From an uncultured Flavobacteriales bacterium (GTDB taxonomy: Bacteria > Bacteroidota > Bacteroidia > Flavobacteriales > Vicingaceae), in the NCBI GenBank assembly GCA_946886085.1, contig CAMPHX010000068.1, positions 1 to 6,876 on the forward strand: DNA of 6,876 nucleotides, given 5' to 3'. The position numbers and the translations under genes are program-made. The notes beneath the pieces are model-generated. The model made no database searches. It had not been told where the DNA came from and saw nothing but the letters and a program-made list of their open reading frames with translations. Below, piece by piece: positions 4,301-6,876 of this stretch (position 1 is its first letter; each line of letters begins with the position of its first letter).

Positions 4301-5005
4301 ATGGCTATTAATAAAGTGGTAAAAAATGCTGAAGAAGCTGTAAAAGGAATAGAAAGTGGAATGACATTAATGGTTGGAGGCTTTGGTTTGTGTGGTATTC
4401 CAGAAAATTGTATTGCAGAGTTGGTAAAATCTAATGTAAAGGAGTTAAACTGTATTTCAAACAATGCTGGTGTAGATGATTTTGGATTAGGACTATTGTT
4501 GCAAAAGAAACAAATTAAAAAGATGATTTCTTCTTATGTTGGTGAAAATGATGAATTTGAAAGACAAATGCTTAGCGGAGAACTTGAAGTAGATTTAATT
4601 CCACAAGGTTCGTTAGCAGAAAGGTGCAGAGCAGGAGGAGCTGGAATTCCTGCATTTTTTACTCCCGCAGGTTATGGAACAGAAGTAGCCGAAGGAAAAG
4701 AAGTAAGAGTTTTTAATGGTAAACCACATATTTTAGAAACCGCATTAACAGCCGATTTTGCAATTGTTAAAGCGTGGAAAGGCGATACCGCAGGAAATTT
4801 AGTTTTTAAATACACTGCTTTAAATTTTAATCATGTAATGGCAACAGCAGGTAAAGTTACCATTGCGGAAGTAGAAGAATTAGTACCTGAAGGAGAATTA
4901 AACCCTAATCATATTCATACCCCAGGAATTTTTGTACAACGAATTTTCCAAGGGAAAGACTACGAAAAACGTATTGAACAACGAACTACTCGCTCTCGCT
5001 CATAG
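4301..5005 (+). CDS. scoA: 3-oxoacid CoA-transferase (succinyl-CoA:acetoacetate) subunit A
   Basis: Subunit A of the two-subunit CoA-transferase that transfers CoA between succinyl-CoA and acetoacetate, a cytoplasmic step of ketone-body and branched-chain amino-acid use. The 234 residues match the usual length. The N-terminus carries the family signature [19 protein letters not shown] (19-37), with the glycine-rich CoA-binding loop, and then a long stretch typical of flavobacterial ScoA, including [20 protein letters not shown] and [21 protein letters not shown]. The C-terminal [19 protein letters not shown] is also conserved. The ATG has an A-rich leader and no Shine-Dalgarno. The catalytic Glu is in subunit B. 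The last residues, TTRSRS, are encoded by a CTCGCTCTCGCTCATAG stretch that ends exactly at the left arm of the inverted repeat, so the tail may have been altered when the element arrived. A broader-specificity acetate/acetoacetate (AtoD-like) role is possible but less likely. Confidence 0.95.
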
Positions 5006-5042
5006 ATAATGTAACAATTCACTAATTTACCAATGTAACAAT
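5006..5042 (+). repeat. Left arm of 37-bp inverted repeat
   Basis: Pairs with 5417-5453. Base-by-base comparison with the reverse complement of the right arm gives 14 matches (ATAATGTAACAATT), 3 mismatches at 5020-5022, 15 matches (TAATTTACCAATGTA), 1 mismatch at 5038, then CAAT, for 33 of 37. Pairing stops at 5043, five bases before the ATG of the enclosed gene. The arm also contains the 11-mer AATGTAACAAT twice, at 5008-5018 and 5032-5042. Confidence 0.93.
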
Positions 5043-5047
5043 GTTTT

Positions 5048-5398
5048 ATGGAGATAAGAGACAACTTAATTGTAACTAAGACCATCAATTTTTCATTATT
5101 AATCATTGAATTTTGTGAGGAGTTAGAATCAAAAAGAAAGTTTGTTATAGCAAATCAATTACTTCGTTCAGGAACATCTATTGGTGCAAATGTTCACGAA
5201 GCTCAAAATGCAGAAAGTAAAGCAGAGTTTATACATAAAATAAAGATAGCCGCTAAAGAATTAGATGAAACTAAATATTGGTTAATTTTATGCAAAAAAG
5301 CGAAAACGTATCTTTTTAATTTAGAATTGGAAAATCAGATTAAAGAAATAGGATTAATTATATACAAAATACTAAGTACAAGTAAAAAACTAAAATAA
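5048..5398 (+). CDS. Four-helix-bundle protein (23S rRNA intervening-sequence protein / S23 family)
   Basis: A 116-residue protein of the family first found encoded in intervening sequences of 23S rRNA genes and related to the Avd accessory protein of diversity-generating retroelements. The core motif LLRSGTSIGANVHEAQNAESKAEF (38-61) matches the family pattern of SxSIGxNxxEAxxxxSxxEF, followed by KIKIAAKELDETKYWL (64-79). Four predicted helices lie at about 7-27, 29-53, 56-85 and 90-113, and the length is normal. Family members form oligomeric bundles; nucleic-acid binding is suspected, but the cellular role is not established. Here it is not inside an rRNA gene: it lies alone in an inverted repeat between scoA and scoB, and has no part in CoA transfer. 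The ATG at 5048 is the first in frame, five bases after the left arm; an ATG at 5041 is out of frame. No reverse transcriptase is present in the window. Confidence 0.92.
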   Translation: MEIRDNLIVTKTINFSLLIIEFCEELESKRKFVIANQLLRSGTSIGANVHEAQNAESKAEFIHKIKIAAKELDETKYWLILCKKAKTYLFNLELENQIKEIGLIIYKILSTSKKLK

Positions 5399-5416
5399 TA
5401 AGTAGTAGTTATCATA

Positions 5417-5453
5417 ATTGCTACATTGGTAAATTAACAAATTGTTACATTAT
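5417..5453 (-). repeat. Right arm of 37-bp inverted repeat
   Basis: Reverse complement matches 5006-5042 at 33 of 37 positions. The arm begins 18 bases after the stop codon of the four-helix-bundle gene and ends at 5453, with only AAAGT between it and the scoB ATG. It therefore covers positions -42 to -6 of scoB, the region where a ribosome would load; pairing with the left arm in the transcript would put that region in a stem. Confidence 0.93.
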
Positions 5454-5458
5454 AAAGT

Positions 5459-6112
5459 ATGTTAGATAAAAACGGAATAGCACAACGAATAGCACAAGAA
5501 TTAAGAGACGGATGGTATGTAAACTTAGGGATAGGAATTCCCACATTGGTAGCGAATTACATTCCCAAAGGCATAACCGTAGAGTTTCAATCTGAAAACG
5601 GTATTTTAGGTATGGGGCCATTTCCTTTTGAAGGGGAAGAAGATGCAGATTTGATTAATGCAGGAAAGCAAACCGTTACCTTACAACCGGGAGCTTCCAT
5701 ATTCGATTCGTCAACGAGTTTTTCTATGATTAGAGGTCAGCATGTGCAATTGACTGTTTTAGGAGCAATGGAAGTAGCTCAAAATGGAGATATTGCCAAT
5801 TGGAAAATACCGGGCGTTATGGTAAAAGGAATGGGAGGAGCTATGGATTTAGTAGCTTCAGCAGAAAATATTATTGTTGCCATGATGCACACTAACAAAA
5901 AAGGTGAAAGCAAGTTATTGGAAAAATGTACACTTCCTTTAACAGGAGTAGGGTGTGTTACTAAAGTAGTGACCAACATGGCTTATTTAGAAATAAAAGA
6001 TGGTGCTTTTCACCTAAAAGAAAGAGCTCCTGGTGTTAGTGTAGAAGAAATAAAAGCTGCTACAGCTGGAAAACTAATTATTGAAGGCAATATTCCTGAA
6101 ATGAAGTTGTGA
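5459..6112 (+). CDS. scoB: 3-oxoacid CoA-transferase (succinyl-CoA:acetoacetate) subunit B
   Basis: Catalytic subunit partner of ScoA. In 217 residues, the usual length, the N-terminus has the VNLGIGIPTLVANYIP stretch (21-36) and then QSENGILGMGP (44-54), where Glu46 in the SENG motif is the residue that forms the enzyme-CoA thioester in this family. GAMEVAQNGDIANWKIPG and KGMGGAMDLV are further conserved blocks, and the C-terminus is complete. The ATG at 5459 gives the expected MLDKNGIAQRIAQELRDG start; there is no Shine-Dalgarno and the leader TATAAAGT is A+T-rich. scoA and scoB are commonly adjacent in one operon; here 453 bp of inverted repeat plus an unrelated gene lie between them, which could affect coupling and subunit balance. 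Both reading frames are intact, so the enzyme should still be made. Confidence 0.95.
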   Translation: MLDKNGIAQRIAQELRDGWYVNLGIGIPTLVANYIPKGITVEFQSENGILGMGPFPFEGEEDADLINAGKQTVTLQPGASIFDSSTSFSMIRGQHVQLTVLGAMEVAQNGDIANWKIPGVMVKGMGGAMDLVASAENIIVAMMHTNKKGESKLLEKCTLPLTGVGCVTKVVTNMAYLEIKDGAFHLKERAPGVSVEEIKAATAGKLIIEGNIPEMKL

Positions 6113-6299: not shown

Positions 6300-6876
6300 T
6301 TAGTTTGAGGATAGTGGGGAAGGAGCATAATTTTTAAATTCATATCCGACTTTTTTCAGCCAATCAAGTAAAAAACTCCATTGAGGTTCAGTCCATTGTG
6401 AAGTCAAATAATAATTATCACAAAAAATTTCTCGTGCATAATATCTTGTTCTTCCGTATTCGTCTTTAATTGGTCGGCTTTTGTGTTTTAAAACTTCATA
6501 ATTCGAGTTGAAAACCCTTTTAGAATATTCTAGTTTTTGTAATTCATTTATTTCACTTGCTGACAAAAGATTTAATTCAAATAATTTTCTAAAACTATGT
6601 TGAGCAAATTGTCCAATTTTCATCCCGTTTATTTCTCTTTTTTTACTCGAATTTCTCGAAATAACAAATTTAGTATTTATTTCGGTTGATTTTGCTTTTC
6701 GATTATCAAGTTTCATTAATTTAATTGTTCTTGAAAAAAGTTCAGTTGTATCATGTTCTTCGTCTATATTTTCCAAAAGTGAATCTACAATGTTAGAATA
6801 GAATTTTTCATTCGAGATAAAGTCAATCGTAATATTTTCATCATTAATTACTTCTTTTGCTTTAATCATTAAATCC
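6300..6876 (-). CDS. Hypothetical protein, probably 5'-partial
   Basis: I do not recognise this gene. It reads leftward, converges on scoB, and stops with TAA at 6300-6302. An ATG at 6869-6867 gives 189 residues, but the two codons before it are open to the window edge (D-L-M-I-K), so the real start may lie outside. The first 60 residues are acidic and probably helical. Then come a basic stretch KFVISRNSSKKREINGMKIG (67-86), a likely helical pair FAQHSFRKLFELN and ASEINELQKLEYSKRVF (88-120), and a C-terminal aromatic-rich segment GRTRYYAREIFCDNYYLTSQW (139-159) followed by a WSFLLDWLKKVGYEF helix. The C-terminal part loosely recalls small domains at the ends of Bacteroidota nuclease or restriction-type proteins, but this is a memory-based impression. 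There is no signal peptide or membrane segment. Sampled lines are about 20-35% G+C, lower than scoB, which suggests accessory DNA. Confidence 0.7.
   Translation of the reverse strand, partial: DLMIKAKEVINDENITIDFISNEKFYSNIVDSLLENIDEEHDTTELFSRTIKLMKLDNRKAKSTEINTKFVISRNSSKKREINGMKIGQFAQHSFRKLFELNLLSASEINELQKLEYSKRVFNSNYEVLKHKSRPIKDEYGRTRYYAREIFCDNYYLTSQWTEPQWSFLLDWLKKVGYEFKNYAPSPLSSN

What the first reader, a model, noticed from the sequence alone, without database searches (positions are those of the whole stretch)
5006..5453. Four-helix-bundle gene enclosed by a 37-bp inverted repeat inserted exactly between scoA and scoB
The left arm starts at the base after the scoA stop and the right arm ends 5 bases before the scoB ATG; the arms match at 33 of 37 positions. 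The enclosed gene belongs to the family known from 23S rRNA intervening sequences, which also have an ORF in the loop of a long stem. A free-standing copy in a metabolic operon, A+T-richer than its neighbours and without a transposase, suggests a small element that moves or is maintained by an unknown route, perhaps as structured RNA. Seen: repeat, gene, position. Known: family and its rRNA context. Inferred: mobility.
Basis: partly seen in the sequence, partly recalled or inferred. Interest (0 to 1): 0.78.

Follow-up and report, generated by a model that had tools for sequence, protein, structure and literature searches.

The report
Gene bracketed by mirrored short repeats
A small gene of unknown function sits between two mirror-image strings of 7-8-letter DNA words, an arrangement that recurs in distant bacteria; such words are scattered through genomes that carry the gene and look rare where it is absent, so the gene may drive, or at least depend on, an unexplained class of bacterial repeat.

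Summary
In detail: a PF05635 four-helix-bundle (FHB) gene lies between inverted arms (33/37) exactly at the scoA-scoB junction. The arms are not an ordinary 37-bp terminal repeat but degenerate arrays of an 8-nt word (AATGTAAC type). This is one case of a wider, apparently undescribed arrangement. FHB genes are flanked by inverted 7-8-nt word arrays far more often than other genes: 70/135 versus 3.2% of 463 in Bacteroidota, 16/21 versus 2/85 on plasmids (mostly cyanobacterial). Words differ between copies; two of three tested recur in dozens of positions of their own genome. Arrays are scarce in five FHB-free genomes (1 in 683 kb), common in three FHB-rich ones (105 in 1.2 Mb), and their density rises with FHB number in 79 genomes. 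The protein is under purifying selection. The site is empty in many relatives, but FHBs at least 70% alike share their site in 99/100 pairs (92 at this very site), so jumping is rare or old. Reverse transcriptase is not required, and no G-U wobble signature supports an RNA stem. Best reading: a REP-RAYT-like pairing of gene and dispersed repeats with an unrelated protein. That FHB drives the arrays is inferred, not shown.

The parts
4301..5005 (+). scoA, 3-oxoacid CoA-transferase subunit A; upstream operon neighbour
   Evidence: TIGR02429, E 4e-77; PF01144
5006..5042 (+). left arm: degenerate array of an 8-nt word (AATGTAAC type), starting at the base after the scoA stop
   Evidence: inverted repeat of 37 nt, 33/37; lag-8 identity 0.69
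5048..5398 (+). [quoted passage not shown]
   Evidence: AlphaFold2 model with four helices, mean pLDDT 93.7; best PDB matches 2rld (3.2e-6) and 2gsc (4.7e-3); dN/dS 0.04-0.16 in the 12 orthologue pairs tested
5417..5453 (+). right arm: the same kind of word array in inverted orientation, ending 5 nt before the scoB ATG
   Evidence: lag-8 identity 0.66
5459..6112 (+). scoB, 3-oxoacid CoA-transferase subunit B; downstream operon neighbour
   Evidence: TIGR02428, E 6.2e-97

Best explanation
The feature is one copy of a recurrent genomic arrangement: an FHB (IVP-family) gene placed between two inverted, degenerate arrays of 7-8-nt words, often at stop-start junctions inside operons and in the direction of the operon. 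In Bacteroidota genomes such word arrays are also dispersed in intergenic regions, some as short FHB-less hairpins with the same word polarity, and arm words can recur many times in their own genome. I propose that the FHB protein is the trans-acting partner of these arrays, binding them as DNA (or their transcripts) and promoting their copying, spread or upkeep. The gene with its arms would be the complete unit, and solo arrays and hairpins the non-autonomous derivatives, much as RAYT genes relate to REPs. At scoA|scoB the unit arrived before the divergence of the window's clade, has mostly been inherited vertically since, and has decayed or been lost several times. Shown: the arrangement, its inversion, the 7/8-nt period, word sharing for some copies, co-occurrence with FHB copy number, and purifying selection on the protein. 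Inferred: that the protein acts on the arrays, and how.
For: Own flanks match better than swapped ones: mean 16.2 versus 9.9, maximum of 2000 permutations 10.6, n=135. Inverted score >15 in 70/135 FHBs versus 3.2% of 463 ORF-called control genes; direct orientation reaches >15 in 17/135. On plasmids 16/21 FHBs with 150-nt flanks (a 22nd, broken gene left out) versus 2/85 control genes score >=20; in a later viral-contig set 7/9 FHBs (two near-duplicate pairs) versus 4/30 control ORFs. Period: 66 arms, lag-7 identity 0.51 versus 0.32 shuffled, z 19.5; lag 8 z 6.6. Word sharing: of three arm words tested in 40 genomes, the GTATTGA pattern gives 41 positions in its own genome G089 (next 12) and the GTTATTA pattern 96 in G099 (next 10), overlapping positions and own arms included; own-genome solo arrays are the best match for 7/9 arms among three genomes. 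Arrays: 105 in 1.2 Mb of three FHB-rich genomes, 1 in 683 kb of five FHB-free ones; lag-10/11 control 4 versus 2. In 79 genomes array density at scoA loci rises with FHB count: 0, 0, 11.9, 25.6 and 76 per Mb; Spearman 0.41, p 1.5e-4. Solo arrays with an inverted partner within 160 nt: 18 of 98, versus 1 of 106 in the null; polarity 16:2, like FHB arms 56:9. Purifying selection.
Against: No movement or array copying was observed, and no nuclease or polymerase family was found in the protein. About half of the Bacteroidota FHBs (65/135) have no inverted flank above the threshold. Both Chloroflexota plasmid genes fail at 150 nt (one passes at 250 nt) and the one Bacillota gene is broken and fails when its true frame end is used. 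The third word (GTTACAG, G111) gave 2 positions in its own genome and 2 in another; 2 of 9 arms did not match their own genome best. In the window's closest relatives (G018, G019, G023) the word pattern is found at only a few places besides the scoA|scoB arms (5, 6 and 8 positions in all; backward control 0, 1, 3). The backward-read control, 0 in G089, hit 41 positions in G097 and 39 in G152, so array words of one genome can resemble a mirror of another's. Genomes with exactly one FHB had no array in 107 kb, and array density also follows genome size (Spearman 0.30, p 0.007). The trend was not corrected for shared ancestry. Most arrays are far from any FHB. The window's own left arm is C-richer (G 2, C 6), against the majority polarity. 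Published TAACTGA arrays of one Beggiatoaceae genome are direct, with one indirect repeat (PMC4679880, abstract passage).
Confidence: 0.52

Rival explanations
1. Messenger-RNA intervening sequence: the operon transcript folds into a stem with the FHB ORF in the loop, RNase III cuts the stem as it does rRNA intervening sequences, and the arms are kept because RNA pairing makes the insertion harmless. The gene needs no promoter because it rides on the operon.
For: Long stem with the ORF in the loop, MFE z -4.26, 0 of 100 shuffles as good; both neighbours codirectional in 107/130 FHBs versus 278/463 control genes; arms at the scoA|scoB site pair better with their own partner than with those of orthologues (20.2 versus 16.8, p 1e-4); RNase III excision is known for rRNA intervening sequences (PMC4990558, passages).
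Against: No excess of G-U-compatible mismatches in 2857 aligned arm positions (83 versus 111 of the opposite kind). It does not predict dispersed solo arrays of the same word or the dependence of array density on FHB number. In two cyanobacterial plasmids the gene is antisense to its cas neighbours.
Confidence: 0.2
2. Passenger: 7/8-mer arrays arise by slippage or another unknown process and sometimes form inverted pairs; FHB genes arrive by some other route and are retained or targeted at such pairs, without acting on the arrays.
For: Arrays greatly outnumber FHB genes (38 arrays and 4 FHBs in 400 kb of G008); slippage has been proposed for heptamer repeats (PMC4692102, passage).
Against: Arrays are scarce in the FHB-free genomes sampled; the inverted arrangement with its polarity is seen in FHB arms and hairpins, whereas solo arrays in codirectional gaps show no polarity (22 versus 30).
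Confidence: 0.18
3. Domesticated operon gene: at this site the FHB protein serves a local role (for example tuning the scoA/scoB ratio) and the arms are ordinary intercistronic hairpins.
For: Retention at the site with dN/dS 0.04-0.16; same site in 99/100 pairs at >=70% identity, 92 of them here.
Against: Many relatives run a tight scoA-scoB junction without it; decayed copies at the same site (stop codon in G012, two frames in G043); the same architecture occurs at many other junctions.
Confidence: 0.1

Closest known systems
REP-RAYT systems (REP-associated tyrosine transposases)
   Same: A gene flanked by two inverted copies of a repeat that is also dispersed and partly arranged as inverted doublets (PMC2817692, abstract and passages)
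   Different: Protein is a four-helix bundle, not a Pfam01797 transposase; repeats are tandem degenerate 7/8-mers, not GC-rich palindromes with a GT(A/G)G head; often several FHB copies per genome, with differing words
23S rRNA intervening sequences (IVS) with the S23/IVP ORF
   Same: Same protein family; ORF in the loop of a long terminal stem; lower GC than the host (PMC4990558, passages)
   Different: Lies in a metabolic operon, not in an rRNA gene; arms are word arrays; cleavage by RNase III not shown
Heptamer tandem repeats: STRR of cyanobacteria (recalled), GGGAATC of Xanthomonas, GGGGA(C/T)T of Nostoc, TAACTGA of Beggiatoaceae
   Same: Arrays of 7-nt words, over-represented in non-coding DNA; 70 and 75 cases of two convergent sites close together in two Xanthomonas genomes (PMC4692102, passage)
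   Different: No FHB gene was linked to them in the passages seen ('four helix', '23S', 'S23' and 'helix bundle' gave no occurrences there); here they bracket and co-occur with FHB genes
Avd of diversity-generating retroelements
   Same: Related fold: 4dwl and 8ub7/8ube among PDB matches, at weak E-values 0.2-1.3; a paper notes that PF05635 resembles Avd (PMC10053308, passage)
   Different: DivGenRetAVD model 19.6 bits against a cut-off of 80; no RVT_1 match in five of 13 FHB-bearing genomes tested

Membership tests
PF05635 / TIGR02436 (IVP, four helix bundle) | profile score above the curated cut-off | tested here: met
   78.9 bits against 33.8, and 89.6 against 24
PF05635 / TIGR02436 (IVP, four helix bundle) | four-helix-bundle fold of solved members | tested here: met
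   model pLDDT 93.7, matches 2rld at 3.2e-6
rRNA intervening sequence | located within an rRNA gene | tested here: not met
   lies between scoA and scoB
rRNA intervening sequence | terminal stem enclosing the ORF | tested here: met
rRNA intervening sequence | excision by RNase III | not testable with these tools
   needs RNA data
REP-RAYT | IS200/IS605-type transposase (Pfam01797) | tested here: not met
   only PF05635 found
REP-RAYT | gene flanked by inverted copies of a repeat | tested here: met
   for this copy; for the group
REP-RAYT | the same repeat dispersed in intergenic regions of the genome | tested here: inconclusive
   the window's genome is not held. In its closest relatives the word pattern has few places besides the arms, in G020, G021 and G022 many (17, 24 and 53 positions; control 2, 3 and 19). 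In other genomes two of three words are widely dispersed
REP-RAYT | palindromic REP with GT(A/G)G head | tested here: not met
   arms are tandem 7/8-nt words
insertion sequence or MITE | transposase, or near-identical multicopy ends | tested here: not met
   no transposase in 5006-5453; arms differ between copies and between orthologues
insertion sequence or MITE | target-site duplication | tested here: inconclusive
   empty junctions seen but too diverged to place ends
DGR Avd | Avd equivalog score and an RT partner | tested here: not met
   19.6 bits against 80; no RT gene called in the window; no RVT_1 match in G008, G010, G022, G023 or G111

The most novel reading that the evidence does not exclude
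FHB (IVP/S23-family) proteins are the missing trans-acting partner of bacterial heptamer-type tandem repeats. Gene plus inverted word arrays is the complete unit of a repeat-driver system found at least in Bacteroidota and Cyanobacteriota, in which copies maintain and spread words through intergenic regions of their host without a recognised nuclease, transposase or reverse transcriptase.
Probability: 0.42. Interest if true: 0.92.

Novelty: categorically new. Interest (0 to 1): 0.8.

Why it matters
Intergenic heptamer repeats have been reported in cyanobacteria, Xanthomonas and Beggiatoaceae, and in the passages I saw their origin is left open or put down to slippage. IVP proteins are called functionally uncharacterized (PMC11270868, passage). 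A close, copy-number-dependent association between the two gives both a concrete hypothesis that can be tested by gene deletion, binding assays and a corrected genome survey. If right, it adds a repeat-driver system built on a protein fold that I do not know to move DNA (recalled).

Tried and rejected
Ordinary IS, MITE or composite transposon: no transposase, and arms differ between copies. Recent transposition: among fetched copies the closest FHB lies in the same genome for 9 of 101, and the highest within-genome identity is 57.6% apart from one copy fetched twice. Direct rather than inverted relation of the flanks: 17/135 over threshold. RNA-wobble signature: none. Reverse-transcriptase dependence: RVT_1 found in 8 of 13 FHB-bearing and 4 of 7 FHB-free genomes. 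Rfam: two weak chance-level matches outside the element at 4900-5600. Ungapped inverted-repeat scan of 400 kb of G008: 7 pairs, none counted as enclosing an FHB; the FHB arms there needed gaps. Scan of viral contigs for the published Xanthomonas word: 3 stretches, no PF05635 match in those records. Rows dropped: of 158 unique FHBs, 157 had 110-nt flanks, reduced to 135 by 70% clustering. The control genes are my own ORF calls in the FHB loci and in 400 kb of G008; those were a hand-typed selection of annotated genes from 12 of the 22 plasmid loci. One search counted 17/22 and 19/22 (150 and 250 nt) with the Bacillota gene L323 bounded by its match; one search showed that its frame is broken and that it fails with the true frame end, so I give 16/21 and 18/21. 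In one search the site test left out L271 and L149 and kept the decayed L144. In one search, 79 of 80 loci were used (L005 left out; its record title names the same isolate as L019) and the FHB region was masked in five. Ten literature searches listed no paper that I could see tying IVP/FHB genes to heptamer arrays; subscription journals and preprints are largely not in that library, and eight papers were seen in passages only.

Full report
Observation. The window carries a 116-aa ORF (5048-5398) of the PF05635/TIGR02436 family between arms 5006-5042 and 5417-5453 that match at 33 of 37 positions. The left arm starts right after the scoA stop and the right arm ends 5 nt before the scoB ATG. 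No shuffle in 10,000 reached the observed pairing score (29 against a maximum of 21). The element is AT-richer than its neighbours (GC 0.250 against 0.357 and 0.381). The arms are arrays of a degenerate 8-nt word: lag-8 identity is 0.69 and 0.66.

The site in relatives. In 80 named loci found with scoA, the gene sits between scoA and scoB in 6 (L001, L004, L005, L006, L047, L052). In 8 no scoB was found, and in 66 the gene is missing; 17 of these 66 have a gap of 13 nt or less. In the 46-genome family of G001, 43 genomes had a scoA match and 30 loci were fetched: 13 have the gene, 13 have scoB but no gene (7 of these with a gap of 8 nt or less) and 4 have no scoB. A few genomes appear in both sets (for example G001, G002, G004). 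Decayed copies sit at the same junction in G012 (a stop codon) and G043 (two frames). In G021 a left word array remains but the gene is gone, and the gap is 974 nt. Arms differ strongly between orthologues, up to a tandem triplication in L135. At this site own arms pair better than swapped ones (20.2 against 16.8, permutation p 1e-4, n=19; reduced set n=15, p 0.00125). The protein evolves under purifying selection (dN/dS 0.04-0.16 in the 12 pairs tested).

The general pattern. PF05635 genes are often multicopy: 12 matches in G001, 9 in G007 and 8 in G010; 95 of 119 genomes drawn from the class of G008 have at least one, up to 23 in G111. Of 158 unique FHBs in my loci, 157 had 110-nt flanks and 135 remained after 70% clustering. 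Own flanks paired far better than swapped ones (mean 16.2 against 9.9; maximum of 2000 permutations 10.6); 70/135 exceeded the 95th percentile of swapped pairs and 46/135 the 99th. ORF-called control genes exceeded the same threshold in 3.2% of 463. Direct orientation gave 17/135. Both neighbours are codirectional in 107 of 130 FHBs with both neighbours called, against 278 of 463 control genes. Arms have period 7 or 8: dominant lag 7 in 37 and lag 8 in 22 of 66 arms; lag-7 z-score 19.5.

Other phyla. A protein search of the plasmid collection gave 25 records; 22 were fetched. One of these, in Monoglobus (Bacillota), has a broken frame and is left out. With 150-nt flanks, 16 of 21 scored 20 or more, against 2 of 85 control genes; with 250-nt flanks, 18 of 21 against 3 of 84. 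By phylum at 150 nt: Cyanobacteriota 14/17, Bacteroidota 1/1, Spirochaetota 1/1, Chloroflexota 0/2 (1/2 at 250 nt). Several Nostoc cases look like the same site in related plasmids, so they are not all independent. In a later set of nine viral contigs (two near-duplicate pairs), 7 of 9 passed, against 4 of 30 control ORFs.

Link to dispersed repeats. In 400 kb of each of three Bacteroidota genomes there are 38, 28 and 40 degenerate 7/8-mer arrays, mostly intergenic (38/38, 23/28 and 32/40) although non-coding DNA is only 13-18% of the stretches; 5 of 8 FHBs have an array within 150 nt, against 137 of 1042 genes. Three block shuffles of the G008 stretch gave 0-1 arrays. Of three FHB arm words tested across 40 genomes, the GTATTGA pattern had 41 positions in its own genome (next 12) and the GTTATTA/GTTGTTA pattern 96 (next 10); positions overlap within arrays and include the FHB's own arms. 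GTTACAG had only 2, tied with another genome. Backward-read controls were 0 in the own genomes but not everywhere: 41 in G097, 39 in G152 and 22 in G135 for the first pattern. In a three-genome comparison the own genome's solo arrays were the best match for 7 of 9 arms. The window clade's word pattern is abundant in G020, G021 and G022 (17, 24 and 53 positions; control 2, 3 and 19) but sparse in the closest relatives G018, G019 and G023 (5, 6 and 8, arms included; control 0, 1 and 3). Some solo arrays form short hairpins without FHB (18 of 98, against 1 of 106 in the null, summed over the three genomes), with G-rich strands facing inward in 16 of 18, as in FHB arms (left arm G>C in 56, G<C in 9 of 70); solo arrays in codirectional gaps show no such polarity (22 against 30). 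The window itself is an exception to this polarity.

Dependence on FHB. Five FHB-free genomes gave 1 array in 683 kb, three FHB-rich genomes 105 in 1.2 Mb, while the lag-10/11 control was 2 against 4; one FHB-free genome differs in GC (0.60). In scoA loci of 79 genomes, chosen without regard to FHB and with FHB regions masked, array density was 0 (23 genomes, no FHB), 0 (12 genomes, one FHB), 11.9, 25.6 and 76 per Mb with rising copy number. At least one array was seen in 0 of 23 FHB-free and 10 of 56 FHB-bearing genomes (Fisher p 0.03). Spearman was 0.41 (p 1.5e-4), and the partial correlation given genome size and GC was 0.37 (p 7e-4). The absolute counts are small (13 arrays in all), genome size also correlates (0.30, p 0.007), and shared ancestry was not corrected for.

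Mobility. FHBs at least 70% identical in different genomes share their site in 99 of 100 pairs, 92 of them at scoA|scoB, the site that guided the search; outside that site the counts are 7 of 8 at >=70%, 9 of 43 at 60-70% and 39 of 358 at 50-60%. Site changes therefore seem to happen, but slowly. Among the copies fetched no recent duplicate was seen within a genome.

Mechanism. The protein is a confident four-helix bundle matching 2rld and 2gsc and, weakly, Avd structures. Reverse transcriptase seems not to be needed: no RVT_1 match in G008, G010, G022, G023 and G111, all FHB-bearing, though draft genomes can miss genes. Arm mismatches show no G-U bias (83 against 111), which argues against selection for an RNA stem, although the sense RNA folds better than shuffles. 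I therefore favour a DNA-level or transcript-level partner role for the FHB protein in keeping and spreading word arrays, analogous to RAYT genes, described as always flanked by two inverted REPs (PMC2817692, abstract and passages). This role is inferred.

Known work. Heptamer arrays are described in Xanthomonas and Nostoc, with 70 and 75 cases of close convergent sites in two Xanthomonas genomes (PMC4692102, passages), and in Beggiatoaceae, some Cyanobacteria and Bacteroidetes (PMC4679880, passages). IVP ORFs are described in rRNA insertions (PMC4990558; PMC11270868; passages only). None of the ten literature searches listed in Tried and rejected showed me a paper connecting the two. The novelty label rests on that limited library.

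Noticed in passing
L314, L319, L326, L316, L322, L332, L323: On cyanobacterial, Chloroflexota and Bacillota plasmids the FHB gene (broken in L323) lies inside defence-type loci: between cas2 and cas1 (antisense, two cases), csx2 and cas1, drmD and MmeI, DUF1156 and Swt1-HEPN (in two phyla), and the S and R subunit genes of a type I system.
   Followed up: partly
L048:5697-5774, L056:3892-4136, L075:5697-5914, L076, L176 (scoA-scoB gaps): FHB-less hairpins or inverted word arrays (by eye) occupy the same scoA-scoB junction in other Bacteroidota; L176 carries a CGTCATTGCGAGGAACGAAGCAATCTC-type hairpin.
   Followed up: partly
L008, L010, L019, L022, L032, L041, L044, L045 (gaps of 1.2-1.9 kb); L020, L024, L034, L069 (2.8 kb); L031, L080 (3.6-3.7 kb): Long sequences, probably other genes, lie between scoA and scoB in many of the 80 loci, so this junction seems to accept insertions repeatedly.
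   Followed up: no
G021, L167:524-1497: A left word array is kept next to scoA but no FHB gene is found; the 974-nt gap seems by eye to hold another ORF.
   Followed up: no
G008:C8:120414-121317: The right arm of an FHB between sdhA-like and sdhB-like genes (identified by eye) pairs with a further array about 0.85 kb downstream, so the same word occurs at a neighbouring junction.
   Followed up: no
PMC5524665 (passages): Both Flavobacterium columnare strains in that paper list an FHB gene between guanylate kinase and nicotinate-nucleotide adenylyltransferase genes, in regions the authors call phage elements.
   Followed up: no
window 6300-6869 (-): 189-aa ORF with no Pfam or NCBIfam match at 0.001 and low GC (0.274).
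   Followed up: no
L015 (CP034120.1): Record titled Glaciecola amylolytica carries a scoA 86% identical to the query, which otherwise matches Bacteroidota records; the name may not fit the sequence.
   Followed up: no
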